This document shows positions 3,466-43,442 of a DNA stretch of 64,000 bases, piece by piece. Source of the stretch: Mytilus galloprovincialis. Its lineage: Eukaryota > Mollusca > Bivalvia > Mytilida > Mytilidae. The notes under the pieces were generated by a model. That model did not search any database. It saw nothing but the letters and a program-made list of their open reading frames with translations, and had not been told where the DNA came from. The stretch is taken from assembly GCF_965363235.1 (NCBI RefSeq), contig NC_134844.1, positions 22,736,646 through 22,800,645 on the forward strand, given 5' to 3'. The number at the start of each line of letters is the position of its first letter. Position 1 is the first letter of the stretch. The translations under genes and the position numbers were made by a program.

Positions 3466-3785
3466 TCTGATATATGAACGCACATACCGGTGCGTTCCTT
3501 ACGCTTTCTTTTTGTTTCACCGACTTATAAATAATTTATACATTACGGTCACATTACTTGTCAAAAAGTATGTGATTGAATAGTTCCTTTTCTAGCTGTA
3601 AATATCATATTGACGAGAAGGTTCAAGAGGGTTCTTGACTAAGAATCAACTTCTGAAATTTATAGTTGAATAAATAAAAAATAAAACTGAGAGCTGCTGC
3701 TAACAATGTAAATTTAAAATTGAAAAATCCACGTTTTTAAAGTGCCACTTTTAATTTTGAAAAATCATATATGTTTGTTGTCATA

Positions 3786-3906
3786 CTCTTTTTTACCTTA
3801 TGATACCCTTTTACCTTTACTTGGGTAACGTTTGTGGGATTAATTTGAGTGATATATATATACTTCAACCATTAAAACATCATTTATTTTGCCATCTGTG
3901 CATAAG
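3786..3906 (+). promoter_or_regulatory. Promoter and non-coding first exon of secreted gene A
   Basis: A TATATATATA block at about 3852-3861 precedes a strong donor, CATAAG|GTAAGT, with the exon ending at 3906. The segment TTACCTTATGATACCC at about 3793 matches TTACCTAATGATACC at about 12210, upstream of gene B. Blocks around 3570-3640 (GAATAGTTCCTT, CATATTGACG, AAGGGTTCTTG-like) likewise match 12010-12080. Both genes then have an AG acceptor immediately before the ATG. I infer that transcription starts near 3880 and that a 4.3-kb intron separates this UTR exon from the first coding exon. The exact start site is not visible. Confidence 0.5.
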
Positions 3907-4610
3907 GTAAGTTAATTATGATATCAATGCAATAACGACTAGGATGAAGGTTGGTTCTGTCTTTATTCAAGAGAATTGTTAATTACACATACGAACATTT
4001 GAACATAAGTAAAACGTTCTTAAAATCTACGAATTGATCTGAGTATCAACATTTATATAGTATAAACCTAAAACCGAATTATGATAATACAGCACAAAAT
4101 GTCATCGGGTTCAACAAGTTTAACCTACAAACAAACATCCATCTTTATCTATCTCATCCGTATGTTAGAAAATTTTCACTGTCATAACTTAATTTGACGA
4201 TGTGAGAAGTGCTTGCTATTTTATTTGGCTACTAGCTAAATTTCTCTGCTGAATGCTACCGCTGAAGAAATGATAATCACTCCAAACAGGTTTGTGAAAT
4301 CTCCTCACATATCGATTTGAAATTTGCAATATTTGTAAGAGACCAGTTATGGTATAATTGTTTGAATATTGTATGTATACCAAACTTCTTTTAGATAGAA
4401 AGGAATTAAAAATAAGGAGATGGGGTATATAGGTTGAAAGATACGCCTCATCTTTGCGCCTGTCCCTAGGAAGGAGCCTCTGGCCTTTGTTAGTCCTGTT
4501 TAAAAAAACTTCAGTTCATTTATATGTTATATGTATGACGTCCATTTTCACAGAACAAATTTACAAAATTTTTTATTAGGGCCCATTTAGACCCAATTCC
4601 GGGATCGGGA
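3907..4610. other. First intron of gene A, no gene seen
   Basis: AT-rich sequence downstream of the 5' UTR donor. I see no exon, RNA gene or clear repeat boundary here. Confidence 0.35.
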
Positions 4611-4619
4611 TTTTCTCGC

Positions 4620-4905
4620 TGCGTAGACCAATTGGCAGCCTTCTGCTCTTTGGTCGGGTTGTTGTCTCTTTGACATATTCTACATTTGCATTTTCAATTT
4701 TTATTATATATCGGTAACCGAACATACAAGTGAGGTGTTTAGCAGCTAGCTTTAACATCATGTTTAGCCACTATTTTTTACATAAGGAAATGCCTGTATC
4801 AAGTAAGGAACATAACAGTTGTCGTCCAGTTGTTTGTTGTGTTTGAGCTTTTAAAACTTTCCATTTTCAACTTGATTTCAGTATTTTTGTGGTTTTACCT
4901 GTTTT
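4620..4905 (+). repeat. Dispersed repeat R1 copy
   Basis: Shares, with insertions, the block order of the copies at 6520-6725 and 13865-14035: ACAAGTGAGG, GCTAGCTTTA, ATAAGGAAATGCCTGTA, AACAGTTGTC, GTTTGAGCTTTT, TTTCAGTATTTTTGTG. No coding capacity. It recurs throughout the window in both orientations. Confidence 0.55.
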
Positions 4906-5079
4906 TTATCAATGGACAAGGATATGAACACGTATTTGTAGCAACCGTTTGACACCAATCAATAACGCATCCTACTGAATTTAAGTTTTTGTCTTATGTT
5001 GTGCTGTTATATCTCTGTTAAGGATAATAATCAAGGTTGATTGCTCACAATCATGTTGACCTCAATTCATCTTTTATAT

Positions 5080-5365
5080 CAAATTATAAGCCTGGTATTT
5101 CTGATAACTATTATTATTTTGTACTTAATCTGTAGCCTTTTTTCAATGGTTTTTGGTGAGTTGTTGGCTGTCTGTATATTCCGTTTTCGTTTATTGTTTT
5201 GTCAGGGCAGCACTCAGGCTGTTGGTTTTCTCATTTTGAATTGTTTCACGTTTTGTCATATCGAGGCCTGTTATATCTCAAATTGGCTATTGTTGAATGC
5301 TCAAACTGTGGTTTGCATTATGATCGGAGTAAATAATGACCTGACATATGCATTCAGTTTATAGT
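5080..5365 (+). repeat. Dispersed repeat R2 fragment plus duplicated intron block
   Basis: Positions 5130-5290 belong to the repeat family whose opposite end (GTCTCATTGGCAATCATACC type) is seen at 18.0, 36.5 and 43.5 kb. At 5308-5350 the block CAAACTGTGGTTTGCATTAT matches ACAAACTGTAGTTTGCATTA at about 14376 in the equivalent intron of gene B, an intron-level trace of the gene duplication. The open frame spanning 5041-5364 is not supported as a gene. Confidence 0.45.
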
Positions 5366-5369
5366 TTGA

Positions 5370-6515
5370 GGTATACTTTGTTTTGGCCACAGAAATAATA
5401 GAAATAACTCTACGTACATATATATAATTTTGATTTTCATCATCAACATAATCAATGCGAGCCAAAATTGCATTTCAAATTGGTGTTGTATAAATTAACA
5501 AATTAGAGGTAATTAGGCATTCAAAACTGATAAAATAAAAGATAAACTGGACAAGTATGATTTAAATTGGTCGAGTAAAAATCAGACATTTAAAAAGTAG
5601 AAGCAAAAATTACCAAACTGGAACTTTGCAAGTTTACTTTGAAAAGGTGGAATTCATAAAAACTGAAAAAGTTGGTCGCCTATATCAAGCAACGGAAAAA
5701 CGGAAATCAACTGTATTATTTTGAACTTAGTAAAGGCATTTTCCGGGAAAAATTATAAGTTCAACCTGCTGTAATAGCTATGTAAAAATACCACTTGAAT
5801 GACATTTGATGTAGATAAAATTGCATGAGCAACCCTTAAAGACATATTTGGTTAACATGACAATATGTTTGATCCAGTGGTCAAAACTGTGTTATACATC
5901 ACTGATATATAATACAAAAGAGTAAAACAACTAACAAACATACAAATAAATAAATCTGAAGTAGACGCCAAATCAAACAGCTTTTGTAATTTATAGTGTA
6001 CACAGTATAAAAAACATTATGACTAACATATTTTCGAGAAAAAGGACAAGGCGTTATTTGACAAAACCCTGGCTAATTTCTTTCCCCAGACAACAATTAC
6101 GTTTTACCAAATCTGGAATATGGTATGAGTTGAGAAATGTATACTCTGTGCATATATGCTAGGGAAGTTGAAATATATATAATTTCGAAATTTACATCGT
6201 CTCGTTTGTCATAGACTCTGTCACTGAGGTGGGCGCTGTAGTCAAATTCGAGGTATAAACATTTTTTTTTTTACACCAGTAATGAAAACCTTCTTTCATT
6301 TATGGATAGACTTTACATAGATAAATTTAGCCGTATAGGAAAAGCAAAATGAGAATGTTGAATTTGATGTATGCCTTTTTGTGCTATTATGTTACATTTG
6401 TTGTTTATGTAGTGATATTAAGATGAAAACACAATATTGACTGTTGTACCCCTATTTTTGACATTTTTACTCTTTGAGTATGTTTGTATTGTTCATGCAT
6501 CGTTGACAATGTAAT
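5370..6515. other. First intron of gene A continued, no gene seen
   Basis: AT-rich non-coding sequence with short A/T runs. I see no exon or identifiable element. Confidence 0.35.
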
Positions 6516-6519
6516 GGAA

Positions 6520-6725
6520 TTTGATGCGACTGTCATACAAGTGAGAGGTTTAGCTAGCTATAAAACCAGGTTCAATCCACCATTTTCTACATTAGAAAAT
6601 GCTTGTACCAAGTCAGGAATATGACAGTTGTTATCCATTCGTTTGATGTGCTTGGACTTTTGATTTTTGATTTTCCTTTTTGAATTTTCCTCGGAGTTCA
6701 GTATTTTTGTGTTTTTACTTTATAT
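6520..6725 (+). repeat. Dispersed repeat R1, well-preserved copy
   Basis: Contains the R1 blocks CATACAAGTGAGAGGTTTAG, CCAGGTTCAATCCACCATTT, CCAAGTCAGGAATATGACAG and GAGTTCAGTATTTTTGTG. This copy is close in sequence to those at 10935-11130 and 13865-14035, and inverted copies lie at 7850-7960 and 15785-15915. The GGTTCAATCC block resembles a tRNA B box, but I could not find a convincing A box at the right distance, so a tRNA origin is not claimed. Confidence 0.6.
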
Positions 6726-6729
6726 TATG

Positions 6730-8230
6730 CGGAGAAAGATGTATTTTTGGCTTGTTTTTTCTTTAATTCAGAATGATATGTTTTTAATGGGGATCAATAA
6801 GAAAAGTTTGGTTCTTTAACTGAAAAAAATCATCTATTTACCTGCATGTGAAATAAATATAAAAGATCCAGCTTGTTTTACCTTTTTGATATTTTAAAGT
6901 GTCATAAGGATATCCGACTCATCTGGAAATAGATATATGTCGCCGAGGAAAGGAACGCATTTGGTTCCCATAGGAATGCTCACAACCATCTGTAGTAATT
7001 ATGCCTTCAAATTCAACAAATATGTTGATACCAAGAACCTACAGCATACTGATCACTTGCTCTTTTATGTATTATGAATGAACAGGCTTGGTACAGTTGA
7101 AATTTAGGTACAGTTCAAGTCGGGATTGGATTTAGATTGTGTCAACCTTGTCGACTAGTTCATATTCAGTAGGGTCTAGATAAGGGAGAAAACTGTAGAA
7201 TTGAATTTTCTTATTATAGACTTTTACTGATTCGTAGTGCCACTATCTTTTGTTAACTGCCAAAATTCTTTCAGTGCTGAATTGTCAATACATTATTTCT
7301 GGAATGTCTGTTGTTTTCATTTTGCCATAGTTAAGGACCTTTCCGTTTTTGAATTTTCTTGGAGTCGGTCTTTTGTTATCTTACTTTTTACCGATAAATT
7401 ATAGAGATGTTTGGCACCTCTGTTATTTCTATCATTTATTTGGACAACACACATTTTTATTGAAATATATACCTTAAATCATATACTAAAACCTGGTTGA
7501 AACCTTTTGTTTCATTGAGAGCTATTGATCACTTTATTGATTTTCGGCGTTATCATGAAAAGAAAGATTAGAACAAAGACAATATGCGAATTGCAGGAGG
7601 CGTACATAAAATTCAATCGTGGATTCTACATTTCCCTATGTTGTTGTTCCTATATACCAGTAGATAGCGGCTAAAATGTTAAACTTGAAGACTTTATATT
7701 TTGAAATACTTATTACAGAAATAATTGAGAACTTTTTTTACTGTGTTATACCACTTTTTTTATGTTCACTTTAAATGGAGCAAAGTATGCACATCATATT
7801 GAGTGACTGAATATTATCAACGTATCTGAAAGACGTAAAATTACAAAAAAGTGAACTTCGAGTAAAAATTCAAAACGGAAAGTCCCTGATCGAATTGTAA
7901 AATCAAAAGCTCAAACTCATTTAACGAATGGACAACTGACATACTCCGGACTTGTGCAATTAGAGATGAAATTGAAGAACGTTTCAATATGCTCTTCTGT
8001 TTGTCTTTGAGAAGGTTCTGTACAACATTTGCTTCGCATGAGTACCAAAATAGAAGGCCACTGGTTGTGCACTGCATATAAGTACCCTTTTATATACCGA
8101 CTGTCTGCTGAAATATCAATCACCAACTCTATAAATGTGTTTTTGAACAAATAGTTCCGTATTTTTATGATATCATCTTCGGTTTAATTGTTATGAAATC
8201 AGCGTGCTTAAATGAAAGATACATTTTTCT
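6730..8230. other. First intron of gene A, last part
   Basis: Non-coding sequence containing a short R1-like piece at about 7320-7400 and an inverted R1 copy at about 7850-7960 (CAAAACGGAAAGTCCCTGAT on the plus strand). Overlapping minus-strand open frames at 7841-8150 read through that repeat and are not genes. Confidence 0.4.
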
Positions 8231-8237
8231 ATTACAG

Positions 8238-8355
8238 ATGAAGACTCGATACCATTATGTGTTGTTCTTTTTATTCACAATCATAACAGAATGTACGAGT
8301 TCTACATTCTGCCAAGAACAAGAAATACCGGTACTACCATTTCTTTTTATTTTTG
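8238..8355 (+). CDS. Gene A coding exon 1 (signal peptide)
   Basis: Encodes residues 1-39 and the first base of codon 40. It is preceded at once by CTATTACAG, so the ATG is the first codon of its exon. It ends at G|GTAAGC. The 40-residue counterpart in gene B shares the pattern M[KR]T....VL.F...TIITE. Confidence 0.68.
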
Positions 8356-10228
8356 GTAAGCAAGTTCTGTACACGATTAATTGTGACATCTACAATTTTC
8401 TGCATTTTCTTATTATATAAGTAGCCACACTTCCATATGTAGCTTACAATATCCAAAGTTGCTGGAATATTACAGTTAATGTCATAGATATAACAATTAT
8501 CACAGTAATTTTTTCAACAATGAAAGATTGTTCCTTCTCAGCATCATTTTGTTAGTGTGACACAAATTGTATCTTTTTGTTTTTAGTTTATATAACAAAA
8601 ATATTGGTGATATTTTTTCACACTGAGTATGTCAGGTACAGTTGTAATGTGAGTATGTTTTACTTAATGGAGAGTAATGATCTGTAACAGTTATATTGTC
8701 AGATCTCAAATAAATATGCTGTGCATACATTAAGGAAATATGACAGTCTGTCATCCTTTTCATTGGAAAGTTTGTAAACTTCTGTTTTGCTCTATATACA
8801 TATGTATCTCCACATGAATAGATATTTCGATACTGCCCATATTACAGTTTGTATTAAAAGTCAGCAGTTGATGTTTTCAGATCACTGTTTCAAAGATAAT
8901 ACAATTATATCTTAATCCGCATGTTGTGAATTCATACTTAAACAAAGGATACAGCCACACACTTCGTAATTCAACTAAGCTGTGTTTGTGTACTTTCCTA
9001 ATAATTTTAGTTTTTCGTTGTTTTTCTGTGGGTAAAATGTCGAAATGTACTATTATATTATTTATTTCTGTATGTATCTGTCTTTAGAGTTTAAGCATGT
9101 ATTTGTATTCCTGTCATTTGTCATGTTGTCATTTCAGCGATATATTTAACATTGCCATAAAGCGCGGAGGTTTTGCTAGCCACAAAAACTAGGTTCAACC
9201 CACCATTTTTCCTCAAACTCTCCTATACCAAATCGGCCATATGGCAGTTGTTAACCAATAGTTCGTTTCAATGTATGTTGCATTGTTGTTTGCTTTTTGT
9301 TGCACTTTTGTGTTCTGTTATTTCGTTGTTTTTCTCTTATAGGATTTTTTTTTGTCTCATTCGATTTGTGACTTTTTAACAGCGGTATTGTTGCCTTTAT
9401 TTATAAACCAACTTTCGTGGATTCCTTGTTCATATTTAAACCACGAATTTAAATGCTCAACGAAGTATACATTTTCTAAAGGCTTCTCAACAAGCTTTAG
9501 TGAAATACAGAACAGATGGAGTCCTCGACATAGAAATTCAGAAAACCAAAAGCAAAACTGGCTGTGATCGCTGCTTCATTGCCTGCAGCGAAAACTTATC
9601 GTTTGTGTTCTACTTGCTTTATAGTAGTGCATTCTTTTTTAAATGTCGTTTAGTTTTTGATGTAAACCCATCCACTGATTGTAGTATACTTTATTTTATT
9701 CTTTGCATAAGAAATGTTGCAGTATATTTTTTAAGTGCATTATCTTATGTAGATTTTTATACCAAACATCCAATAAAGATATAACGCTGTCTAATTTTAA
9801 AAATACTATAATGCGTGTTTATATTCTAGTTTGTATAACAATTAATGTTTTTTGGCGTTGATTTCTGTGTGTTTTAGACGGTAGTATATACTATAGTATT
9901 TTTTCAGTACATAATGATATTAACATTCCTGCTGTTCGTTTTTCTGATTTCAGGAACAGGAATGACCATGGGAAGTATGATGTGTCCAACATGTCCAGTT
10001 ATCAATTGTCCAACGAATCAATCAACTTGTCCCCCAACAGTATCAACATCGACAAGTACCATACAGCCTACGACAACTGGCCAATCTTGTGATGTAAACG
10101 AATTACAAGCACTGAGAGACGAAATTGTAGAGTGGAATTTTTGTCAAACTATAGCTAATTCGGAAGACTGCAATAATAACGCTAGATGTACTTTGAATGT
10201 AAATTGTGGGCCAATACAAAATAAATGA
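8238..10228 (+). CDS. Secreted cysteine-rich protein, gene A (two coding exons)
   Basis: Coding exons are 8238-8355 and 9954-10228. Donor G|GTAAGC and acceptor TTTCAG|GA join in phase 1, giving 130 residues. Residues 1-20 (MKTRYHYVLFFLFTIITECT) look like a signal peptide. A cysteine-proline tract follows near residues 47-60 (MMCPTCP, INCP, TCPP), then a Ser/Thr-rich linker. The C-terminal domain has cysteine spacing C-x17-C-x8-C-x5-C-x5-C with NELQALRDEIVEWN inside the first gap and GPIQNK at the end. The start is the ATG directly after an AG acceptor (CTATTACAG|ATG), as in gene B. Gene B is a clear paralog: by my count 34 of the last 46 residues are identical. The family is unrecognised; a mucus, matrix, byssal or defence role would be a guess. 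Conservation of both exons between paralogs is the main support that this is a real gene. Confidence 0.72.
9173..9260 (+). repeat. R1 fragment in gene A intron
   Basis: Contains GGTTTTGCTAGCCACAAAAA and AGGTTCAACCCACCATTTTT, the central R1 blocks, inside the 1.6-kb intron between the coding exons of gene A. The remainder of that intron (8356-9172, 9261-9953) shows no exon; an open frame at 9500-9784 is not supported by splice sites or family resemblance. Confidence 0.45.
9954..10228 (+). CDS. Gene A coding exon 2 (mature domain)
   Basis: Begins after TTTCTGATTTCAG and completes glycine codon 40. It encodes the CP-rich tract and the five-cysteine domain, and stops at TGA 10226-10228. The sequence around the stop, AAAATAAATGACACC, is the same in gene B, so the AATAAA there overlaps the coding end and need not be the poly(A) signal. 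Confidence 0.75.
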
Positions 10229-10930
10229 CACCCATTATCATCAATATACTTCTTTTGTTTTACTAAAACGCCTCATTGTGAATATAAAATCAGAATGATG
10301 TTTGCGATGAAGATGCCAAACCTTGAGTTATTCCATTCACCTGCAGTTACTTTCAAAGCTAGTTTTGTGTGATTTAACAATGGATAAACTGATAATTAGT
10401 AAAGTCGATAAATGTCAAACAGATAAATGTATCTGAAGTAAACAAATTATAATATATCAAAAAGATAAGTGCATCTGAAGTAAACAATTATAGCATATCT
10501 AATTATTCTTAATTGAGAATAGCATATGACATTATTTTAGTATTGTATATGTGATTTAAATCACTATATATTAATGCCAGTCTTTGTTAACACTTCTAGA
10601 CTCGAGAATGATTAGAAATAGCTTATCAGCCATATAGAATTATCATGATAATGCTCAGGGCAATTACCATGGATAAAGCAAGTAAAAATGTTCATTTTAT
10701 ACGAGTGACGTTTCAATTGTCGTTAAAATGGAACAGGTACTGTGTTTACCATTCCGGAAATGATAAGTTCATACCTGTGTTGTTCAATCGTTAGTTTTCT
10801 ATGTAATATTATTTTTAATTGTTGTTAGTCCTTTTGTCGTCTTTATTATTAATATTTGCCATGGTGTTGTCTGTTTTTATTAAACTTATGATTTTTGAAT
10901 GCCCCTTTCCCTTATATAGTTATCAATATC
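10229..10930. other. 3' flank of gene A
   Basis: Presumed 3' UTR followed by intergenic sequence. A degenerate direct repeat (GATAAATG..TCTGAAGTAAACAA..ATA) appears twice at about 10420-10500. No further gene seen. Confidence 0.35.
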
Positions 10931-10934
10931 ATTG

Positions 10935-11130
10935 AACTATATGCGACTGTCATACAAGTAAGAGGTTTATCTAGATATAAATCCCAGTTTCAACCACCAT
11001 TTTCTGCATAAAGAAATCCTGCACCAGGTAAGACATATGACAGTTCTTTTCCCTTCGTTTAGTGTGTTTCAGCTTTTTATTATTTGCAATCTGATAAAGA
11101 ACTTTCTGATTTGAAATTTTCTTCATTTTA
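10935..11130 (+). repeat. Dispersed repeat R1 copy
   Basis: Carries GCGACTGTCATACAAGTAAG, TAAATCCCAGTTTCAACCAC and CACCAGGTAAGACATATGAC, aligning block for block with 6530-6650 and 13875-13960. Confidence 0.55.
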
Positions 11131-11194
11131 CGACACTCGTTGAATCTGACAACATCAAGCGACATCAAAATAGTCAGTAATACAAATTCACTGT

Positions 11195-11250
11195 GTATAC
11201 GCGTCTGGCGTATTTAATTATAATCCTGGTACCTTTGATAACTATTTATA
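11195..11250 (+). repeat. 3' half of the hammerhead-bearing repeat
   Basis: ACGCGTCTGGCGTATTTAAT and TCCTGGTACCTTTGATAA match the part of the hammerhead repeat from stem III to the tail. The 5' half with CTGATGA is absent, so no ribozyme can form. Confidence 0.55.
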
Positions 11251-11484
11251 TATTTTTTCGGATAATATAAATCACTCAAAATAATAGACAGTACAAGAGA
11301 CCACTCATAAAAAACCCATATCAAAATAGGCAAACAAAAACTAAAACCGAACGGCCTAGATAGCTGACTTAATAAAGGCACACGATGTAGTCATCAGATT
11401 CCATTTTTCGTACACACGAACTTCCTCAGTAACGATCTAAATGAAATTTGAAAATTAAAACCCCCAAAACACTCCTAGCAGATT

Positions 11485-11690
11485 TACTGAAGTTTCAGCA
11501 CCAACACTCTAACAAGTATAATGAAGTAACATCATCGTTGAATGAGGTGTCGTCATCAACACTCAAACAAGTATAATACAGTTTTATTCTCAGCGCTCCT
11601 AACAAGTATAATGAGGTTTTATCACCAACACTCCAACAGGTATAATGAAGTGTCATCATCAACACTCCTAGCAGTTAAATGAAGGTTCGT
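11485..11690 (+). repeat. Degenerate minisatellite, about 35-45 bp unit
   Basis: The phrase CAACACTC..AACAAGTATAATGA and variants repeat four to five times (near 11500, 11558, 11600, 11628, 11660), separated by GGT.T.TCATCA. It lies between genes A and B and has no coding frame. Confidence 0.55.
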
Positions 11691-12199
11691 CTAATTGATC
11701 GATTTCAAAAACTAACAAGTGTACTGGAAAAGCATTTCAAACTATACAGACAGCAAAAGCTGGTATTGAAATTTGATTTATTTCATATCAACACACGTTT
11801 TTGTCGAACATTGTCTGGAGGTGGTTGAGAACTAAAGATGTTTGGATCAATGGAAAACTCAGAGCCGTTTTAATGTGTTCTAGAATATGGTTTTCCAGGT
11901 ATAACGAGTACCAGAGATATTGATATATCAATAAATAACGCTTAACATGATGACATTTTCAATACATCCTTTAAAGTACTACAACTTAATTTGTCATGAT
12001 ATACATGATCGAATAGTTCCTTCTATTTAACCCAACACCATATTAACACGTAGGTCCGCAAGGGTTCTTGCGTTCAAATCAAATTATAAAATTTAGGTGT
12101 AAAATGAAAAATTCTGAGTTCTGCTGGCTTTGTACATCGAAAACTTCGAAAAGTTTATTTTGAAAATTTAAACTTGAACTATTTATAATCGTAAATATT

Positions 12200-12314
12200 T
12201 TTAATCTGTTTTACCTAATGATACCTTTATAACTTTTTCTTTGGTATCATGGTGGTACAATGATTTAAACAGTGCAGTCATTTCAAAATGTTTAGTATTA
12301 CATCTATTTCAAAG
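12200..12314 (+). promoter_or_regulatory. Promoter and non-coding first exon of secreted gene B
   Basis: TTACCTAATGATACCTTTAT at about 12210 matches the gene A promoter block at about 3793. The exon ends at TTTCAAAG|GTAAGT (12314), the counterpart of the gene A donor at 3906. No clear TATA box: only TTTAAA near 12265. The upstream stretch 12010-12080 also matches 3570-3640. The distance from donor to ATG (4.27 kb) is almost the same as in gene A (4.33 kb). The transcription start is inferred. Confidence 0.45.
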
Positions 12315-12450
12315 GTAAGTGTATTATCATAAGCAGAAAAATAGTACAGAGCATGATCTACGGCTCAATTTATTTCATATCTATAATTTCAATAATATTC
12401 AGATATTTTCATACTTTGAAAACAGAGACGGTCAGGTTTCTTTCTTACAT

Positions 12451-13172
12451 TAAAAGGCGGTGCATTACACTACAAGGAGATAACTCTGTAAAATTCAACT
12501 GAACGTTTAATCACATTCTGTTGTTAAGGAAATATTCAACTTCTCATTGATCAAAACTAGTGTTTGTCAATTTGCTATGCATGAAACGAACTTTTTCTGA
12601 TAAAGTTTTTTGAAATTTTATATTTCTATCAAAGAAGGACGAAAGATACCAAATGGACAGTCAAACTCATAAATCGAAGAAAAAAACTGACAACGCCATT
12701 GCTAAAAATGAACAGCACAAACAGACAAACAATGGTACACATGACACAACATAGAAAACTAAAGAATAAACAACAAGAACCCAACCAAAAACTAGGGGTA
12801 ATCTCAGGTGCTCCGAAAGTGTAAGCAGATCCTGCTCCACATGTGGCACCCGTCGTGTTGCTTATGAGATAAGAAATCCGGTAAATAGTCTAATTCGGTA
12901 GGTCACATTTATGAAAGGGAAGGGATTTTAGTTACGACGTAAGGAACATATCCGATATCATTTGTGAAACGGTTAGTCCATTATGGTCAACCAACTCGTG
13001 ATGGCGTCCGTAAAATTTACGAAGAGATGATTTCAACTTCTCCATTTGGAACTCTTGATTTAAAAGCTTCCTTGTGAGCAACTAAGGATCAGGGTAAACA
13101 TTTTGTTAAAATTTTATTAAAATTATACGAGACAAATTAATTTTATTCGAGGAGTTTGGTATCACCTTTTAA
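12451..13172. mobile_element. TTAA-flanked MITE, split by a later insertion
   Basis: The left half (12451-12633: GCGGTGCATTACACTACAAG, GGAGATAACTCTGTAAA) and right half (13095-13172: AAATTAATTTTATTCGAGGA, ending TTTGGTATCACCTTTTAA) align with the two halves of the intact element at 62637-62899. Terminal inverted repeats of the GGTGGTACC type and TTAA at the ends suggest a piggyBac-related MITE. A reverse-transcriptase fragment occupies the middle. Confidence 0.6.
12634..13094 (-). pseudogene. 5'-truncated reverse-transcriptase element (3' end only)
   Basis: On the minus strand from about 13090, an open frame encodes the last 50 or so residues of a reverse transcriptase (LTRKLLNQEF, KLKSSLRKFYGRHHELVD, SQMISDMFLTS), ending in TAA near 12950. 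A 3' untranslated tail follows that matches 15470-15760. The element is cut at its 5' end, as expected of target-primed insertion, and sits inside the MITE at 12451-13172. The same family is seen at 15104-15442, 39611-40640 and perhaps 46590. Confidence 0.7.
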
Positions 13173-13699
13173 ATGAAATGCTTGAGAGATTATATATTCA
13201 AGACAAATAAGTACGACAGAGAGAAGCTTTAATTTTTCGTATTGAAAACATGAAAACAACACGTTAAAAATTGCATGCATCCGAACTGTTTTTCTTGATT
13301 TACATCATCAGTAACGCTTAATGCCGAATATATTGTATTTGAAAGCCGAGGATGTATAAGAAAAACAAAAGACGTGTATGACCAAAACATACCTAAACAA
13401 AAGCCAAATTCATCTAAGGGCAACATTGCCTGAGGGAGTTGAAACCTTAATTTCTATAAAATGTATAAATTTATAAACGAACAATTTCAGACTGACTACT
13501 GAGTGATAATATTCTCGGGGACCGGTGGTCCACCAGCAGCAAAGGCATCGATGAAAAATAATTATTCGGGCTAATGATTTGTACATCAACGAATGTATCA
13601 TTATCCACAGGCTATCAATATTACGGGCAAAATGTACGTTCACATCGTGTGATATTAGCGAATATAGAAAGATATGCAACAGGTGGTTTATGCCGCCGA

Positions 13700-13815
13700 A
13701 ACTTGATACGCCAGGCGTGCGCTTTGTCTACATAAGACTCATCAGTGACGCTCAGATCAAAAAAGTTATAAAGCCAATCAAGTAAAGAGTATTGAGGACC
13801 CAAAATTCCAAAAAA
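13700..13815 (-). repeat. Hammerhead-bearing repeat, core-mutated copy
   Basis: On the minus strand stem I (GCGTCA 13751-13746 with TGGCGT 13713-13708), CTGATGA and stem II are intact. The base after GAC is A instead of the invariant G12, and A15.1 is G. I predict no cleavage. The flank CTCAATACTC...TTATAACTTTTTTGATC matches the other copies. Confidence 0.6.
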
Positions 13816-13864
13816 GTTGGTCAAATATGCCTGGGATATGAAAATCCTTAGTTTTTTCGAACAA

Positions 13865-14215
13865 ATTCAAAACCAGGTTCAATCCACCATTTTCTACATA
13901 AGTAGATGCCTGTACCAAGTCAGGAATATGACAGCTGTTATCCATTCGTTTGATGTGTTTAAGCTTTTGATTTTGCCATTCGATTACGGACTTTTCGTTT
14001 TGAATTTTCCTCCGAGTTCAGTATTTTTTTTTATGTTTCTTCTCTTTTTGTTATACATATTCTGTTGAAAGATTTTCGTTAATGGATTTCAAGGATAAAG
14101 ATATTTTCTGGTATGTGTTTTATTCACTGTTGAAGGCCGTATGGTGACCTATCGTTGTTAATGTTTGTGTCATTTTGTCTCTTGAAGAGAATTGTCTCAT
14201 TGGCAAACGTAATCA
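13865..14215 (+). repeat. R1 copy followed by R2 fragment
   Basis: 13865-14035 has the R1 blocks (CAGGTTCAATCCACCATTTT, CCAAGTCAGGAATATGACAG). 14120-14215 has the R2 blocks (GAAGGCCGTATGGTGACCTA, ATTGTCTCATTGGCAAACGT). The two families often lie side by side in this window, so they may be parts of one larger element. The open frame at 13817-14068 is a repeat reading frame, not a gene. Confidence 0.5.
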
Positions 14216-15100
14216 AACCTAATGCCATTTTAATGCCTTTTTCTTTTAAAGAAAATAATCGGTATAGAATACAGTATTATTTTATCGCACATAGTTGTCT
14301 ATTTAAGATATAGACTGGTATAGAAAACGCCCAATTTACAACAACACATGATTACTATAAAATGATGTTTTAACAAACTGTAGTTTGCATTATAATCGGT
14401 ATAAACTATGATCTGATCCAGGTCACTATATTATGCACCAGCTACGAGATAGAAAATATAAAATAAGATTTATTTTGTTCAATCATTAATGAAAGTAATG
14501 AAAGTAAAAGGTGAAATAATATATCGCGTTAGCAGCCAGTATGGTCCAATTTTGTCAAAATAAGCTCAGAATCATCGATGATGAATTATTCACTTGCAAG
14601 TTAATAATTCGACATCATTGAATCCGTATTCATGGGAACTCAATTTATACTCATGGCTAGAGATGGATACCTCATGCATTGTTTTAAAGGAAGTAAATGA
14701 CAACATTAAAAATGTAACAATGGTAACTAATTTCATTGACTGATTCGATCCACATACAAATCATGTTTATACAGGTAAATAAAGGCAACAGTAGTACACC
14801 GCTTTTCGAAATTCATAAATCGATTGAGAAAATAACAAATCCGGGTTACAAACAAAAACTGAGGGAAACGTATCAAATATAAGAGGAGAACTAGAATTAG
14901 ATGGCGTCTAGACTAAAATACACACAAAACGAAACTTCATATTATCAAGCTCATGCACGGTTTTTTGTATATTTTAGACTTTTTATGATTTGGATAAATG
15001 TGAATTTGAGTCAAATCGGAGAACATGAATTTGACAGCTAGTGCACTTTTCATTGAAACTTGGCTTCACGAGGATTGTGTCTTCAAAATAATGACACATC
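14216..15100. other. Gene B first intron, no gene seen
   Basis: AT-rich. Positions 14376-14415 (ACAAACTGTAGTTTGCATTA, TATGATCTGA) match gene A intron at about 5308-5345. Nothing else assignable. Confidence 0.4.
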
Positions 15101-15103
15101 GTT

Positions 15104-15780
15104 GTGAAAGGGAATAACTGCAATATAAAAATAAACCCTCAGAACATCAAACTACAGCCACTAGTTAAGTCTGGCTCATATCTTGACTTACATCTAAAAA
15201 TTGACAATGAGGGTTGGATGAAAACAAAACTTTACAACAAAAGAGATGATTTCAGCTTCCCAATAGTGAACTTTCCCTTTCTATGTAGCAACATTCCAGC
15301 AGTGCCTGCATACGCAGTATATATCTCCCAATTGATACGATATTACAGGGCTTGTATTTCCTATCGTGATTTCCTTGATAGAGTGTTGCTGCTCACAAGG
15401 AAGATATTAAACCAAGAGTTCCAAATGGTGAGGTTGAGATAATCACTTCGTAATTGTTACGGACGCCATCACTAGTTGGTTGACCGTTTCGGAAAAACGG
15501 TTTCACAGATGATATCAGATATGTTCCTTGTGTCGTAATTACAATACCCATCCCTTTTCACAAATGTGACGTACCGAATTTGACTATTTACCGGATTGTG
15601 TAATAACATAAGTAACACGACGGATGCCACATGTGGAGCAGGATCTGCCTACACTTTCAGAGCACCTGCGCGATCACCCTTGGTTCTTGGTGGGACACGT
15701 GTTGCTTAGTCTTTAGTTTTCTATGTTGTGTCATGTGTACTATTGTTTGTCTGTTTGTCTTTATTTTTTTAGCTAAAAAC
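15104..15780 (+). pseudogene. Degraded reverse-transcriptase 3' fragment with its tail
   Basis: 15104-15442 keeps an open frame with the motifs SYLDLHLKIDNEG, KLYNKRDDFSFPIVNFPFL and AYAVYISQLIRY, characteristic of an invertebrate reverse-transcriptase family. The catalytic palm motifs lie upstream and are missing. Past 15442 the homologous reading has in-frame stops (a TGA-like change at LRLR and a TAG after YGRHH), so the frame is dead. The tail 15470-15760 is non-coding and matches 12634-12950 inverted. Related proteins are multi-copy in molluscs and cnidarians. Assignment to Penelope-like elements is likely but not certain. Confidence 0.65.
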
Positions 15781-15784
15781 CTCC

Positions 15785-15915
15785 AACACACCAAACGAAT
15801 GGATAAACAACCATTATATTCCTGACTTGGTACAGGCATTTTCCAAAGTAGAAAATGGTTGAAAAACCTGGTTTTATAGCTATCTAAACCTCTCACTTGT
15901 ATGACAGTCCATTTA
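15785..15915 (-). repeat. R1 copy, inverted
   Basis: On the plus strand CCAAACGAATGGATAAACAA, TCCTGACTTGGTACAGGCAT and AACCTGGTTTTATAGCTATC are the reverse complement of R1 blocks. Open frames on both strands here are repeat artefacts. Confidence 0.55.
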
Positions 15916-15919
15916 ATTG

Positions 15920-16580
15920 ACAAACCAAACAGACATAACAGGTAAAAATGACCAAAAATAGGGATACAACAGTCAACATAATATTATTATCTTAATCATT
16001 ATGAAAAAAAGAAGCACAAAAAGGCAAATAGACAAAGAACATTGGATACTTTATTTACTTTAGTTTCCTTACAAGCAACGTTATTTTGTTGTGTCTTCCA
16101 AAAGTTCCACGAAACCTCTTCAGTTTATTACTATCTGTGTTATTAGCAATCAAAGCAGGACTTTGGTTATTGTGAAACTTCATTTTGTTCAGGCGGCGTA
16201 AATTAGATGTTGATACTAAAACAATCAAATAGTCAAATACCAGCTAATATTAAGTCTTATATGTATATGCATCATTTGTCTTATAAGTTATGACATATAT
16301 AATTATGTGATTCCTGCATTAAATTTCAACTTATAGATCTCAGTAAAGTAGTATTGCAAAAAATATACAAATTAACATGTTCTAGTCCTGGTGTGTAATA
16401 AAAGTAAAAGCTGGATATCAAACATTCGTCAATCAATCAATCAATCATTCATTCTTTCCATCAATCCATTTATTACTCGAATCAGAGTCAATTCAAATGG
16501 ATTGTTTAATACAGTCTAAGCATTTGTAATTCAAAGGAGACTGCCATTTCACTGCATGGTACACGATGCACTTGTATTTT
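15920..16580. other. Gene B first intron, last part, with (TCAA)n
   Basis: Mostly unstructured AT-rich sequence. A short (TCAA)n-type microsatellite is at about 16429-16455. Confidence 0.4.
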
Positions 16581-16584
16581 ATAG

Positions 16585-16705
16585 ATGAGAACTGGCTGCT
16601 GTCATGTGTTATTGTTCTATTTATCTACAATTATAACAGAGAAATTGAGTTATGCACAATGCCAACAACAAGATTCATCACCATTACTGTTTCTTTATGG
16701 TCTTG
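16585..16705 (+). CDS. Gene B coding exon 1 (signal peptide)
   Basis: Encodes residues 1-40 plus the first base of glycine codon 41. It ends at CTTG|GTAAGT and follows ATTTTATAG directly. Same phase and near-identical length to the gene A exon. Confidence 0.7.
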
Positions 16706-17851
16706 GTAAGTAAATCTCAGATCGTATGACAAAATAAATTAATCAATTATAACCGAGTTACGAATTGAAAAATCCACTCACAGCTGCAGACAATAAATAC
16801 GTAGCCGTTATCGCTGACATTTGACAGTCGGAAGCCATGGGCTCTCTGACTGCTAAATTTGTTTTTGTGACCACTGTTTCTCTGGAGAGAAATACATAGA
16901 TGTGTTTTAATCTGTGTAAGATACTGCTAATGTGCAAACTATAAAGCAGACATATTATACAAGATATTGGCACCCTCATTCTATGGTCATATAACTTCGT
17001 GAAATACAAGACTTTTTCGTTATTTCTCTAACTACTAGATCACCTGCCGTTTCTTCTCTTTAATTGTTTTCCCTTATTGTATAGATATGATGCTCTTAAA
17101 CATTGACAACAGAGAGATTCCTTGATAGAGGAAAGTAGCTAACTTTTTTTAGAAAATAAGTACTTGCAACGTAATTTAAAATTTGAAATCATAACATTTG
17201 TGTAATATTACAATACTTCACCTAGTTGCCAATCATTTGTTATATACCCAACTATATAGGGATGACCAATTCATATTTGTGGGAGAGAATGTTTTTGCAG
17301 ATGGAATAGTTTCACCTAATTGTTAGAAGGGCTTATTTATTTAGCGCTTGTTTTAATTTGTAAAACAATGATTAATTCCAGTTATAAGCAGGGCAGACTA
17401 TTCATTTCCAAAATTCTTCCCTTCTACCGGATATCAAATGGTCATCCCCTTAAGCTATATGTTTAGTAAAACAATGCATATTAAGACTTCTGTTGGTTTT
17501 TTTTTTCTTATTTCAGGTTCAGGAATCACAATAGGAAGTTCCATATGTCCTACATGTCCTACATGTCCTACATGTCCTACATGTCCTACATGTCCGATTG
17601 TCAGATGTCCTTTGATACCTCAATCAACAGTGACATGTCCTCCTGCTGTATCCATATTGCCAAATACTATTGAACCATGTCAATGTCCTACAACCACCAC
17701 AAGTCAACCGTGTAATCCAAACGAATTGCAATCATTGAGAGATGAGATTGTGGAATGGAATTACTGTCAAACTATAGCTAATACAGCGGACTGTGAGAAT
17801 GACCCAAGATGTTTTCATAATGTTAACTGTGGGCCCAAACAAAATAAATGA
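16585..17851 (+). CDS. Secreted cysteine-rich protein, gene B (two coding exons)
   Basis: Coding exons 16585-16705 and 17517-17851 join G|GTAAGT to TTTCAG|GT in phase 1 and give 151 residues. Residues 1-25 form a signal peptide-like segment (MRTGCCHVLLFYLSTIITEK). The mature part has an expanded CPT tract (five CPT units then CPI), a second CP region (VTCPPAV, CQCP), a short Thr run and the five-cysteine domain C-x17-C-x8-C-x5-C-x5-C with NELQSLRDEIVEWNYC and GPKQNK. The ATG directly follows ATTTTATAG, a likely 5' UTR acceptor. It is the paralog of gene A, about 8.3 kb away in the same orientation with a matching promoter. The extra 21 residues come largely from the CPT expansion. Function unknown; the signal peptide and paired cysteines suggest an extracellular, disulfide-bonded protein. 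Confidence 0.74.
16706..17516. other. Intron of gene B
   Basis: An 811-bp intron, half the length of the gene A counterpart. The minus-strand open frame at 16758-17009 has no supporting features. Confidence 0.5.
17517..17851 (+). CDS. Gene B coding exon 2 (CPT tract and five-Cys domain)
   Basis: Starts after TTATTTCAG, completes glycine 41, and carries a 9-bp tandem repeat (ACATGTCCT) at about 17543-17595 encoding the CPT units. TGA at 17849-17851. Confidence 0.76.
17543..17595 (+). repeat. In-frame 9-bp tandem repeat encoding CPT
   Basis: About five near-perfect ACATGTCCT units, each adding Cys-Pro-Thr. Gene A has only one and a half units at the same place, so copy number has changed since duplication. 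Confidence 0.8.
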
Positions 17852-37264: not shown

Positions 37265-38335
37265 CAAGATTCAAGATTTTCAAGATTTTATTCATAACCT
37301 CAGACACATACTTGTGTACAAGAGGACACTATATACAAACATATTAAGAAAATACTTAGCGAGACAGGACAAAAAAATCACAAATACATAGTATATTATA
37401 AAAGAAAATTGGTATAATTAGATTAAGTATTTTATACCTTTCTTTACGAAAATTGATAATTTCCTTTGAACTTGTACGTTACATATAGACAGCAAGCCAG
37501 TACATTTGTTCTTGCTTGGATTCATTACATAGTAATTAGGTATAAACTTTGATCTAAGAGCAGAAACATCAGCATTTTTACAGGGAAACAATATATGAAA
37601 CTCATTCCCTATTCCCTCATTACATAATGTACATATTCTACTTTCGCTCGCGATCCCCGCCCATCTGACCGTCTCAATAGGTAACTTCAAATTCGAGCAT
37701 CGAAGTTTAGATATGTAATATTTGTCCTTCTCTAAAGGTAATAATCTAAGGTTTTTCAAATGACTTTATTCCAATCTCTTTAAATGAGTGAATATTAGAA
37801 ATTATTTTTCCAAGTGCTCTACCAGCCCTTTTGACTTTGCTTAGGTGGTTGTGGTAAAATTTCCCTTAAATGTAAATATATAAAACCCAAGTATTTGTAT
37901 TGGTCAACAACTTCGAGTTGATTTCTTCCGATCATGAAATTGTAATCAGTCCGCTTACATTTTGACTTTCTGGAGTGAACACGTTTTGATTTATTGGTAT
38001 TGATTAAAACTCTTCAGCGTTTACACCAGTCCCCGAGCTTATTTAACATTAATTGTAGATCGTCTTCGCTTTTAGCCAACAAAGCTATATCGTCTGCATA
38101 AAGTAACGCCGATAATTTCCTGTCTGAGATGAAAATTGAAAATAATGTAGGCGATAAATTGTCTCCTTGTTTTACACCAGTTGTACAGGGGAACCAGTCA
38201 GTTAACTTTCCATTCATTTTTACACAAGATTCGGAACTATTGTAAATGCTCTTTATAGAGTTGTAAATTTTACCAACTATATTATTAACTAACAGTTTAT
38301 AAAGCATAATTTCTCTGTCAACAAAATCGAATTAA
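37265..38335 (-). pseudogene. 5'-truncated LINE (non-LTR retrotransposon), decayed
   Basis: On the minus strand from about 38335: DFVDREIMLYKLL, then CTTGVKQGDNLSPTLFSIFI (reverse-transcriptase motif), LLYADDIALLA (catalytic YADD) and DLQLMLNKLGDWCKR. A stop follows, then in the same frame NTNKSKRVHSRKS and VVDQYKYLGF, and after a shift the C-terminal Cys-rich segment ICTLCNEGIGNEFHILFPC (37418-37759). The segment between FISD and LLYADD is shorter than usual. The 3' end at about 37265-37300 carries repeated CTTGAAAATCTTG. No intact gene remains. Confidence 0.75.
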
Positions 38336-39610: not shown

Positions 39611-40640
39611 TTAGTTCCGATGCAAAGACCCTATAAGTGAATCAATATTAACGCCAAAATATGCAATCTTTAATGACCTGACAACAGTATCGTAACTATA
39701 TCCCTTCTTAATAAGTCTATTTGTTAGTTTTTGAGGTGAATACTGACACCTTTGTGCTTTATAAAAAATATTTTCATAAAAAATTGGATGTGAAATACCT
39801 GAACGTATAAGAAGTTTGCATGTTGAGCTATATTTACGAATGATGTCCTTATACCGATGATAAAATTTAGTAAATGTTTTGACTAGTTTGTGATATCGAA
39901 AACCCTGGTGTAATAATTTTTCAGTAATACATAAATTTCTCTCGTTAAAATCTAAAACATTGTTACATACACGAGCGAATCGTACAAGTTGAGATATATA
40001 AACACCGTAAGATGGTGACAAGGGAACGTCACCATCTAAAAATGGATAATTAACGATAGGAAATGAAAAATCTCTTTTATCATAAATTTTAGTATTCAGC
40101 TTTCCGTTAGTGATATAGATATCAAGATCGAGGAAAGGACAGTGGTCATTGTTAGTATTAGCTTTATTTAAAGTAAGTTCAGCAGGATAAATTTCTTTAA
40201 TATACATACTGAAGTCGTCATTATTGAGAGCCAAAATATCATCCAAATATCTAAAAGTATTATTAAATTTGTTTATCAGATGTTGTTTCGATGGGTCTTT
40301 GCTTATTTTTGTCATAAATTTTAACTCATAGCAATACAAAAACAGGTCCGCAATAAGTGGTGCACAGTTAGTCCCCATTGGAATTCCGATAATCTGACGA
40401 TATACGGAATTCCCAAAGCGAACAAAAATGTTATCTAGTAAAAATTCAAGGGCATATATAGTATCAAAGCTTGTCCAATTGACATAGTTTTTTGTTTATT
40501 GCTACTAAAAAATGACCTAAAAGAGTTTGAACATATATATTCACATTCTGACTTTTTAAATGCCCATTTAATTAGGTGTGTGAATTTTTTCTTAATGAGA
40601 ATGTGAGGCAATGTGGTATACAGGGTAGAATATGGCCGGA
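39611..40640 (-). pseudogene. Reverse transcriptase of an MGTNCAPL-type element, frameshifted
   Basis: An intact frame of 255 residues (40378-39611) has MGTNCAPLIADLFLYCYELK, the catalytic FRYLDDILALNN, PFLDLDIYITNGKLNTKIYD, KRDFSFPIVNYPFLDGD and a long conserved C-terminal region to a natural stop. Upstream, STLYTTLPHILIKKKF (about 40635-40590) and, in another frame, the residues just before MGTN show that the domain started further left and is broken by a shift in an A-run near 40495. The RT family is multi-copy in bivalves. Relation to Penelope-like elements is likely but unproven; I see no GIY-YIG endonuclease. Confidence 0.75.
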
Positions 40641-42319: not shown

Positions 42320-43387
42320 CTATAGATAGTTCTCTGATGTTTTCACCCTGTATATATTTGCAAACGGGTCTTTGCGCTTTTCAAATGTATCACAACCTAT
42401 CAGTAGATATCCTGCTTTATCTATACTTAGACTCTCTGGCATCTCTATCCCATATTCCATGGTATTCTGTAGCGCAATTAATTCTCCATTAGTATTCAGC
42501 ACATGTAAAGCATTGCTAAACATGTCTGCAATTATAATATTGTCATCCGCAGTTACGACGATATCAGTTGGTGCAAATAAATCAGTTTTTATTCTTTCAC
42601 ATCCATCATAACTAAATATTATGTTGCCTTCCATATCAAACGATACCACCCGTCTATTGCCATCTTTATCGGCTTTCTCATCAATTGCATACATTTGATT
42701 TCTGGAATCACAAACGATACGACGAATTTTATTAAAGATTTTACTTTTATTGTCAATTGTTACTTTCTTTTCATGATCTGTACCAAAAACAGCAATGGTC
42801 TGATTGTACGGTTCCGATTGCTCAACCAAAACAAGTATTTGCTCATCTTCTCTGTTTACATGGATACAGAATATGGCCATTGGAGAAACATCCAACAGAG
42901 TTTTAGTTTCACCAGATTTCGCAAATGTTTTTAGCTCAGATGGCGACTGCAAAGATGAAAATAATAAGTCGTCAGTAGATGATAGGGCAATGTCAATAAT
43001 TTCAATGTCAACCTTTTGTAATATTTTCATTGATTTCGATATTTTTGACTTAACGACCCTATTTTCCGACTTTTCTGAATTAAAGTGGCGATAATAAATA
43101 ATGTCATCGTTTGAACAAAGCACCTTCATAATGTTTTTAGATTTTGTTTTGTAGGTGTTCACAACCGACGAGATTACGGCTGAATCATCATCTTCTTTTC
43201 CAATTTCTCTAACGGTATGTGTTTCTGGATGCATCATCTCAGGGTGAATATTCTGCTTACAACTGTCACACATCAATATCCAACACTCTTTGCAGCTCCA
43301 TATACTGGGTTCCGGTTTACTGGCCTTCCTGTCTTCACATAACTTACATGATGGCGAGAATGATACTTTACTTGATGATTTTCCCAT
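42320..43387 (-). CDS. B-box zinc-finger protein with NHL-like propeller (TRIM-like, no RING)
   Basis: One uninterrupted coding exon, 355 residues. Residues 14-57 hold a B-box-type zinc-binding pattern: C14-x2-C17, C32-x2-C35, C40-x2-C43, H48 and H53/H57, with WSCKECWILMCDSC at its centre. There is no N-terminal RING, and only a short possible helix follows. From about residue 85 the chain reads as beta-propeller blades of the NHL/6-bladed type: IRRIVCDSRNQMYAIDE, FAPTDIVVTADDNIIIADMF and PESLSIDKAGYLLIGCD are blade-like repeats. Such B-box/propeller proteins are greatly expanded in bivalves and are usually annotated as TRIM2/3/71-like. Ubiquitin-ligase activity is not expected without a RING. 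A TTTCAG acceptor ends at 43443, so the 5' UTR is probably spliced. Substrate and role unknown. Confidence 0.85.
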   Translation of the reverse strand: MGKSSSKVSFSPSCKLCEDRKASKPEPSIWSCKECWILMCDSCKQNIHPEMMHPETHTVREIGKEDDDSAVISSVVNTYKTKSKNIMKVLCSNDDIIYYRHFNSEKSENRVVKSKISKSMKILQKVDIEIIDIALSSTDDLLFSSLQSPSELKTFAKSGETKTLLDVSPMAIFCIHVNREDEQILVLVEQSEPYNQTIAVFGTDHEKKVTIDNKSKIFNKIRRIVCDSRNQMYAIDEKADKDGNRRVVSFDMEGNIIFSYDGCERIKTDLFAPTDIVVTADDNIIIADMFSNALHVLNTNGELIALQNTMEYGIEMPESLSIDKAGYLLIGCDTFEKRKDPFANIYRVKTSENYL

Positions 43388-43442
43388 ACTGACAGAAATG
43401 AATTACTGTGAGTGGCGTGGTCAATCGGTGTAACAGCCGTCC
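43388..43442 (-). other. 5' UTR part of the B-box gene exon
   Basis: On the minus strand GTCGTTTCAG|GGACGG gives a convincing acceptor (AG at 43444-43443). The 55 nt between it and the ATG have no in-frame upstream ATG that would extend the protein, so 43387 is kept as the start. Confidence 0.5.

What the first reader, a model, noticed from the sequence alone, without database searches (positions are those of the whole stretch)
3786..17851. Tandem pair of unrecognised secreted cysteine-rich genes with duplicated promoters
Genes A and B share a signal peptide exon, intron phase, a cysteine-proline tract and a C-terminal domain with identical spacing C-x17-C-x8-C-x5-C-x5-C around NELQ.LRDEIVEWN. 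They also share promoter blocks (3793 and 12210), a 5' UTR donor about 4.3 kb upstream of the ATG, an AG acceptor directly before the ATG, and an intron marker at 5308 and 14376. I know no named family with this signature. An odd cysteine number in the domain suggests pairing with the CP tract or dimerisation.
Basis: partly seen in the sequence, partly recalled or inferred. Interest (0 to 1): 0.78.

Follow-up and report, generated by a model that had tools for sequence, protein, structure and literature searches.

The report
Mussel gene pair, cysteine-proline hinge
Two neighbouring mussel genes, ancient copies of each other, appear to encode small secreted proteins with an antibody-hinge-like run of cysteines and prolines and a small helical end domain that matches nothing in the libraries searched.

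Summary
The pair is an old tandem duplicate (dS about 1.1) under purifying selection, strongest on the C-terminal domain (dN/dS 0.14). Core patterns of the shared promoter block and intron element match without mismatch only at these two loci in the 1.38-Gb genome. A published myticalin A5 peptide matches that genome at 100%, so the host is taken to be Mytilus. Protein searches returned no third gene and no Pfam, NCBIfam, PDB-sequence or PDB-fold relative.

Corrections: the gene layout is not new, since myticalin genes have it (PMC5577615, passages); the 'odd' cysteine number disappears in the inferred mature chains (10 and 16).

My reading: secreted, acidic, disulfide-linked dimers or oligomers joined through the Cys-Pro tract, as in an IgG hinge; B's tract is a 9-bp coding minisatellite. 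Gene reality about 0.9; mechanism about 0.4. No transcript, mollusc proteome or second species could be checked. Interest is modest.

The parts
3573..3827 (+). Gene A: conserved upstream (promoter) block, core TTTTACCTTATGATACC at 3791
   Evidence: 66% over 262 columns with 12006-12246, E 2.5e-7, next best match in 264 kb E 0.019 or worse; core without mismatch only at A and B genome-wide
3828..3906 (+). Gene A: stretch holding the 5'UTR exon; start not determined; donor after 3906
   Evidence: AAG|GTAAGT, one of two AAGGTAAGT on the + strand of the window
5302..5344 (+). Gene A: conserved element in intron 1
   Evidence: 84% with 14374-14416, E 1.8e-7; core without mismatch only at A and B
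8238..8355 (+). Gene A exon 2: ATG directly after acceptor AG, signal peptide, first mature residues
9954..10228 (+). Gene A exon 3: hydrophobic Gly-rich segment, short Cys-Pro tract, Thr-rich linker, C-terminal domain, stop
10088..10225 (+). Gene A C-terminal five-cysteine domain
   Evidence: dN/dS against B 0.14
10220..10225 (+). Gene A AATAAA overlapping the last two codons
12006..12246 (+). Gene B: conserved upstream block, core at 12209
12247..12314 (+). Gene B: stretch holding the 5'UTR exon; start not determined; donor after 12314
14374..14416 (+). Gene B: conserved element in intron 1
16585..16705 (+). Gene B exon 2: ATG, signal peptide, first mature residues
17517..17851 (+). Gene B exon 3: hydrophobic Gly-rich segment, long Cys-Pro tract, Thr/Pro linker, C-terminal domain, stop
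17545..17595 (+). Gene B coding minisatellite, 9-bp unit = Cys-Pro-Thr, 5.7 copies, 100% matches
17711..17848 (+). Gene B C-terminal five-cysteine domain, predicted helical
17843..17848 (+). Gene B AATAAA overlapping the last two codons

Best explanation
Two functional tandem paralogues of a Mytilus mussel make small secreted, acidic, disulfide-rich proteins. Each has a signal peptide, a short hydrophobic Gly-rich segment, a Cys-Pro tract (CPTCP in A; five CPT units plus CP in B), a Thr/Pro-rich spacer (likely O-glycosylated), and a constrained 46-residue helical C-terminal domain with five cysteines. I infer that the Cys-Pro tract works like an IgG hinge. Cysteines every third residue in a proline-rich extended chain fall on one face and pair with the same tract of a second chain, making parallel A-A, B-B or A-B dimers or higher oligomers that present the C-terminal domains in pairs. 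The C-terminal domain is the recognition or assembly unit. B's tract lengthened by DNA slippage, which adds disulfide rungs. Shown: open spliced frames, paralogy, constraint, composition, minisatellite. Inferred: expression, secretion, hinge pairing, oligomer, slippage, role of the domain.
For: Open spliced frames, and splice sites and phase shared by both genes. Purifying selection: C-terminal domain dN 0.16, dS 1.16, Fisher p 6e-6; hydrophobic segment, Cys-Pro tract and linker taken together p 2e-4. Noncoding blocks conserved above the level of silent sites (57% of silent sites differ; the blocks are 66-84% identical, though local alignment picks the best stretches), with core patterns found without mismatch only here genome-wide. 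The C-terminal domain model has mean pLDDT 80.9 with helices 3-21, 26-30 and 32-35. The peptide KCPTCPTCHK occurs in rat IgG2b (PMC10073301, one passage; that this is the hinge is recalled), and the IgG1 CPPC hinge peptide is a parallel dimer with a core stabilised by its prolines (PMC6997481, passages). Mature charge -6 and -4, no dibasic site, Cys 10 and 16 (cleavage site inferred).
Against: No transcript, protein or disulfide evidence. The even mature cysteine count also allows pairing within the chain. The structure model rests on two sequences, and exon 3 of A gave mean pLDDT 46.5, so nothing supports a structure of the tract itself. No PDB sequence matched the 23-residue tract of B at E<=10. 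A has only two closely spaced Cys-Pro cysteines, so a ladder there would be short. Signal cleavage is judged by eye. Exon 2 alone shows no significant constraint (p 0.24). One unrelated open frame elsewhere in the genome also reads CPTCPTCPT, so the bare motif can arise by chance.
Confidence: 0.42

Rival explanations
1. A secreted defence peptide pair (antimicrobial or antiparasite effector) of the mussel's large lineage-specific repertoire.
For: The gene layout equals that of myticalins: 5'UTR-only exon 1, intron at the ATG, phase-1 intron 2 (PMC5577615 passages). CRP-I genes also begin with a 5'UTR-only exon (PMC10138031 passages). Small, secreted, cysteine-rich.
Against: Mature charge -6 and -4, no dibasic processing site, helix not amphipathic against shuffles (0.82 and 0.50 of 5000 shuffles reach the moment). 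CRP-I shows conserved signal and hypervariable, positively selected mature regions (PMC10138031 passages); here the reverse: nonsynonymous change is lower in the C-terminal domain than in exon 2 (p 0.0035). The searches returned only two copies, against about 50 CRP-I genes and pseudogenes (PMC10138031 abstract).
Confidence: 0.2
2. A structural cross-linker of byssus, shell matrix, periostracum or mucus, where the Cys-Pro tract makes disulfide networks (overlaps with the hinge reading; differs in having no recognition role).
For: Acidic, Cys/Pro/Thr-rich composition and low-complexity repeat growth fit extracellular matrix parts; oligomerisation through the tract would serve it.
Against: Tyr 0 in A and 2 in B mature chains, so not a DOPA-type foot protein (criterion recalled). 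A compact conserved C-terminal domain suggests more than bulk cross-linking. No tissue data. My paper searches on foot and shell proteins showed no match in their listings, but listings do not show sequences.
Confidence: 0.22
3. A secreted metal-binding protein: CxxC-like Cys-Pro-Thr-Cys steps hold Zn, Cu or Cd.
For: Cysteines at i, i+3 in B's tract; mussel byssus binds heavy metals (start of abstract of PMC6508894 in a search listing).
Against: Oxidising secretory route, Pro at every step, and a large linker and domain unlike metallothioneins, which are cytosolic (recalled). No Pfam match of any kind.
Confidence: 0.08
4. Untranscribed relics or a mis-read of conserved noncoding DNA.
For: No expression evidence was available.
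Against: Constraint on the coding frame (p 2e-8 overall), conserved splice sites and promoter, open frames in both copies.
Confidence: 0.05

Closest known systems
Myticalin genes (Mytilus gill antimicrobial peptides; PMC5577615 passages, PMC12294457 abstract)
   Same: Mytilus; short 5'UTR-only exon 1, intron right before the ATG, signal peptide in exon 2, phase-1 intron 2, terminal exon 3; myticalin A5 lies on the same contig of this genome, about 43.6 Mb away
   Different: Myticalins lack cysteines and are cationic with a dibasic site; A and B are acidic, cysteine-rich, without dibasic site
CRP-I cysteine-rich peptides of Mytilus (PMC10138031 abstract and passages)
   Same: Secreted, cysteine-rich, multi-exon with 5'UTR-only exon 1
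   Different: CRP-I has a C-C-CC-C-C knottin array, dibasic site, conserved signal and variable mature part; A and B have none of these
IgG hinge (e.g. rat IgG2b peptide KCPTCPTCHK)
   Same: Same Cys-Pro-Thr-Cys-Pro-Thr-Cys run; expected interchain disulfide ladder
   Different: No immunoglobulin domain, no homology; resemblance by convergence only
Mussel foot (byssal) proteins
   Same: Secreted, low-complexity repeats (recalled)
   Different: Almost no Tyr, few Lys

Membership tests
Myticalin | 5'UTR-only exon 1, intron at ATG, phase-1 intron 2, three exons | tested here: met
   from sequence only, exon 1 inferred from its donor
Myticalin | Cationic, cysteine-free mature peptide followed by dibasic site | tested here: not met
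   Cys 10/16, charge -6/-4, no dibasic
CRP-I | C(X3-6)C(X1-7)CC(X3-4)C(X3-5)C array | tested here: not met
   No CC pair in either inferred mature chain (sequences; array)
CRP-I | Dibasic proprotein convertase site | tested here: not met
CRP-I | Signal conserved, mature peptide hypervariable | tested here: not met
   Reverse pattern between the two genes
Immunoglobulin heavy chain (hinge) | Ig domains flanking the hinge | tested here: not met
   No Pfam match in the 3 sequences given
Works like an IgG hinge | Interchain disulfides between parallel Cys-Pro tracts | not testable with these tools
   Inferred from sequence spacing only
Mussel foot proteins (DOPA type) | Tyr-rich, to be made DOPA (recalled) | tested here: not met
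   Tyr 0 and 2 in mature chains
Any family in Pfam-A, NCBIfam or PDB sequences | Profile or sequence match | tested here: not met
   0 families at E<=10; PDB: one weak hit each, E 8.4 and 0.24, and 0 with the profile

The most novel reading that the evidence does not exclude
A lineage-specific mussel secreted family has independently evolved an immunoglobulin-type hinge: a Cys-Pro-Thr disulfide ladder, lengthened by a coding 9-bp minisatellite, that pairs a previously undescribed five-cysteine helical domain. If the repeat number varies among mussels, hinge length and rigidity would be tunable by slippage.
Probability: 0.25. Interest if true: 0.6.

Novelty: new variant of a known kind. Interest (0 to 1): 0.36.

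Why it matters
Mussel genomes carry many small secreted lineage-specific genes, studied largely as antimicrobial or defence peptides. This pair shares the gene layout of one such family but has an acidic, conserved, hinge-plus-domain protein. It suggests that the layout is a general cassette for new secreted proteins and offers a simple test of disulfide-ladder oligomerisation outside antibodies.

Tried and rejected
Searched for further paralogues in 100 kb either side (tblastn and cysteine-pattern scan) and genome-wide with the C-terminal domain of A, exon 3 of B and exon 2 of A: only A and B. The 8 further matches (E 0.025 to 9.2) were rejected. Five I read in the loci: four are copies of one interspersed repeat read in frame (L025, L026, L027, L029), and the fifth (L028, a minus-strand match that my script read on the plus strand) shows the reverse complement of the same repeat DNA. 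The remaining three (L030-L032) are open frames of 178-547 aa that resemble each other and align at 21-24%. Sensitivity limit: with exon 2 of A as query, B itself scored only E 0.11, so diverged signal exons could be missed. The 358-base promoter DNA query found only itself and not B; the pattern search was needed.

Searches of IMG/VR and GTDB contigs gave 49 and 59 pattern stretches and no relative at E<=1e-3. Structure of exon 3 of A: mean pLDDT 46.5, not used for fold search. Fold search of the C-terminal domain: PDB 0 matches, BFVD 1 match at E 7.4, VIA had nothing to align. A genome-wide scan for successive Cys-Pro-Thr codons gave 5 matches: 4 are overlapping positions in B, and 1 on C3 reads CPTCPTCPT in an open frame with no other resemblance. 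No Rfam match at gathering score and no tRNA in the window. Literature: CPTCPTCPTC gave 0 papers. The four-peptide search gave 2, neither on a mollusc; one, PMC10073301, gave the rat IgG2b comparison. One search gave 0. Searches were judged from their listings.

Considered and rejected: a transmembrane reading of the hydrophobic segment (19-residue Kyte-Doolittle maxima 1.35 and 1.39, sampled every second residue, under the usual 1.6, recalled); a cytosolic tract would also fit poorly with so many cysteines.
Full report
WHERE IT IS. The window is C7:22736646-22800645 of a 1.38-Gb genome in 331 contigs. A published myticalin A5 mature peptide matches this genome at 100% in two places on the same contig, C7 near 66.33 and 66.39 Mb; a third match has E 0.9. 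Myticalins are described from Mytilus (PMC5577615, passages and table section seen), so the host is taken to be a Mytilus mussel; the species is not determined.

THE GENES. Joining 8238-8355 to 9954-10228 gives a 130-aa protein, and joining 16585-16705 to 17517-17851 gives a 151-aa protein, each ending in a stop. Both second introns are phase 1. The four donors read GTAAGT or GTAAGC and the four acceptors CAG or TAG, with the acceptor AG directly before each ATG. Upstream, AAGGTAAGT occurs on the + strand of the 64 kb only at 3904 and 12312, the two proposed 5'UTR donors, 4.33 and 4.27 kb before the ATGs. The transcription start, and so the length of exon 1, is not known.

COPY NUMBER. The C-terminal domain of A finds 2 places genome-wide, A and B. 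Exon 3 of B finds 10 places at E<=10: B, A and 8 matches from E 0.025 upward, which I rejected. Five belong to one interspersed repeat: four were read in frame, and one shows its reverse complement in the DNA. Three are open frames that resemble each other and align at 21-24%. Exon 2 of A finds A and B only, B at E 0.11, which shows the limit of that search. The whole exon 3 of A was sent once, not answered and not repeated. No other copy was found in 100 kb either side. The genome tool calls its counts of repeats and large families lower bounds.

CONSTRAINT. Between A and B, Nei-Gojobori gives dS 1.08 and dN 0.29 over 130 codon pairs; B's unpaired extra repeats are left out. By part, dN/dS is about 0.59 in exon 2 (first 38 pairs), 0.24 in the next 46 pairs (hydrophobic segment, Cys-Pro tract, linker) and 0.14 in the 46-residue C-terminal domain. 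Fisher tests on rounded counts: whole p 2e-8, exon 2 p 0.24, middle part p 2e-4, C-terminal domain p 6e-6; nonsynonymous change in the C-terminal domain against exon 2, p 0.0035. So the duplicates are old, and the end domain is what selection keeps best. This is the reverse of CRP-I, where the signal is conserved and the mature part varies under positive selection (PMC10138031, abstract and passages).

NONCODING CONSERVATION. At silent sites 57% differ. The upstream block (3573-3827 with 12006-12246) is 66% identical over 262 columns with gaps, and the intron-1 element (5302-5344 with 14374-14416) is 84% identical over 43 bases; the next best matches in 264 kb have E 0.019 or worse. Local alignment picks the best stretches, so these identities lean high. 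Of the 13 matching segments between the two gene regions several run in opposite directions or match repeats (one checked); I did not examine each. Genome-wide, the core patterns match without mismatch only at A and B. With up to two mismatches the promoter core has 8 matches in all (control 6) and the intron element 3 (control 0). The patterns were written from A and B, so the perfect matches there are by construction; the result is the absence of others. I read these as shared cis-regulatory sequence, probably giving the two genes the same expression; that is inference.

THE PROTEINS. Signal peptide, then a cleavage judged by eye after TSS (A) or SYA (B). The inferred mature chains of 108 and 127 residues have charge -6 and -4, Cys 10 and 16, Thr 15 and 15, Pro 9 and 18, Tyr 0 and 2, and no dibasic site. 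Next comes a hydrophobic, Gly-rich segment (LPFLFIFGTGMTMGSMM; LLFLYGLGSGITIGSSI) split by the intron; its role is unexplained. Then the Cys-Pro tract: CPTCP in A, and in B five CPT units plus CP, coded by a perfect 9-bp minisatellite of 5.7 copies. Then a Thr/Pro-rich spacer and the C-terminal domain. AlphaFold on the domain of B, with A as the only other sequence, gives mean pLDDT 80.9 and helices 3-21, 26-30 and 32-35; on the whole exon 3 of A it gives 46.5. No fold match in PDB.

KNOWN FAMILIES. No Pfam (3 sequences) or NCBIfam match (2 sequences), only one weak PDB-sequence hit each (E 8.4 and 0.24) and none with the profile, and none in IMG/VR or GTDB contigs. The gene layout is that of myticalin genes: a 5'UTR-only first exon, an intron right before the ATG, and a phase-1 second intron (PMC5577615). 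In this genome the myticalin A5 exon fits that description by eye, with a CAG 7 bases before the ATG and a candidate phase-1 GT after TTCAAG. So the layout is a shared mussel theme, but the proteins fail the myticalin and CRP-I definitions.

MECHANISM. Cysteine every third residue with proline beside it is the pattern of an IgG hinge. A rat IgG2b peptide contains KCPTCPTCHK (PMC10073301, one passage; that it is the hinge is recalled). The IgG1 hinge CPPC holds intermolecular disulfides between heavy chains, and prolines stabilise its parallel core (PMC6997481, passages). In an extended polyproline-like chain of three residues per turn (recalled) the cysteines lie on one face, too far apart to pair with each other, so pairing with a second chain is the natural outcome. 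I therefore favour disulfide-linked dimers or oligomers presenting the C-terminal domains, with B having more rungs than A. Gene reality about 0.9, secretion about 0.85, hinge pairing about 0.4. Against it: an even cysteine count allows pairing within the chain, A's tract is short, no model supports the tract, and one unrelated frame elsewhere also reads CPTCPTCPT. Tissue and partner are unknown. A structural matrix role and a defence role are both compatible with the dimer model; the composition argues against a classical cationic antimicrobial peptide.

LIMITS. No transcriptome, mollusc proteome or second mussel genome could be searched. The pair may already sit in databases as 'uncharacterized protein'. 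The paper library holds open-licence PMC papers only, and no-match statements rest.

Noticed in passing
10220-10225 and 17843-17848: AATAAA overlaps the last two codons (Asn-Lys) just before TGA in both genes; if used as the poly(A) signal, the 3'UTR would be only some tens of bases.
   Followed up: partly
17545-17595: Perfect 9-bp coding minisatellite giving five CPT units in B against one in A; likely length-polymorphic, not tested.
   Followed up: partly
38017-38331 (-) and 50212-50958 (+): Reverse transcriptase fragments, Pfam RVT_1 (E 3.8e-12 and 2.2e-17), retroelement remains.
   Followed up: no
39611-40495 (-) and 15095-15442 (+, in intron 1 of B): Two ORFs that share a Y[DN]KRD..FPIVN-type motif, also seen in an ORF about 13.4-13.9 kb left of the window; the first also shares GIPMGTNCAPL.ADLFLY with an ORF at 121840-123420 counted from the window start. 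Retroelement-like by eye, no Pfam match for the two window ORFs.
   Followed up: no
42320-43402 (-): 360-aa ORF with a weak B-box match under the curated cut-off (E 0.0085) and a C-terminal part that looks NHL-like by eye.
   Followed up: no
G000:C7:66326752-66326856 and 66390323-66390427 (L036, L037): Two myticalin A5 exons with identical mature peptides about 64 kb apart on the same contig; their precursors differ slightly.
   Followed up: partly
L025-L029: Interspersed repeat built of CCCAATTGTCCCAC-like units that can be read as Cys-Pro-Thr-like peptides and mimics the tract in translated searches.
   Followed up: yes
8300-8357 with 9954-9982, and 16660-16706 with 17517-17545: Hydrophobic Gly-rich segment (G.G.T.GS) conserved in A and B between signal and Cys-Pro tract; role unexplained.
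   Followed up: partly
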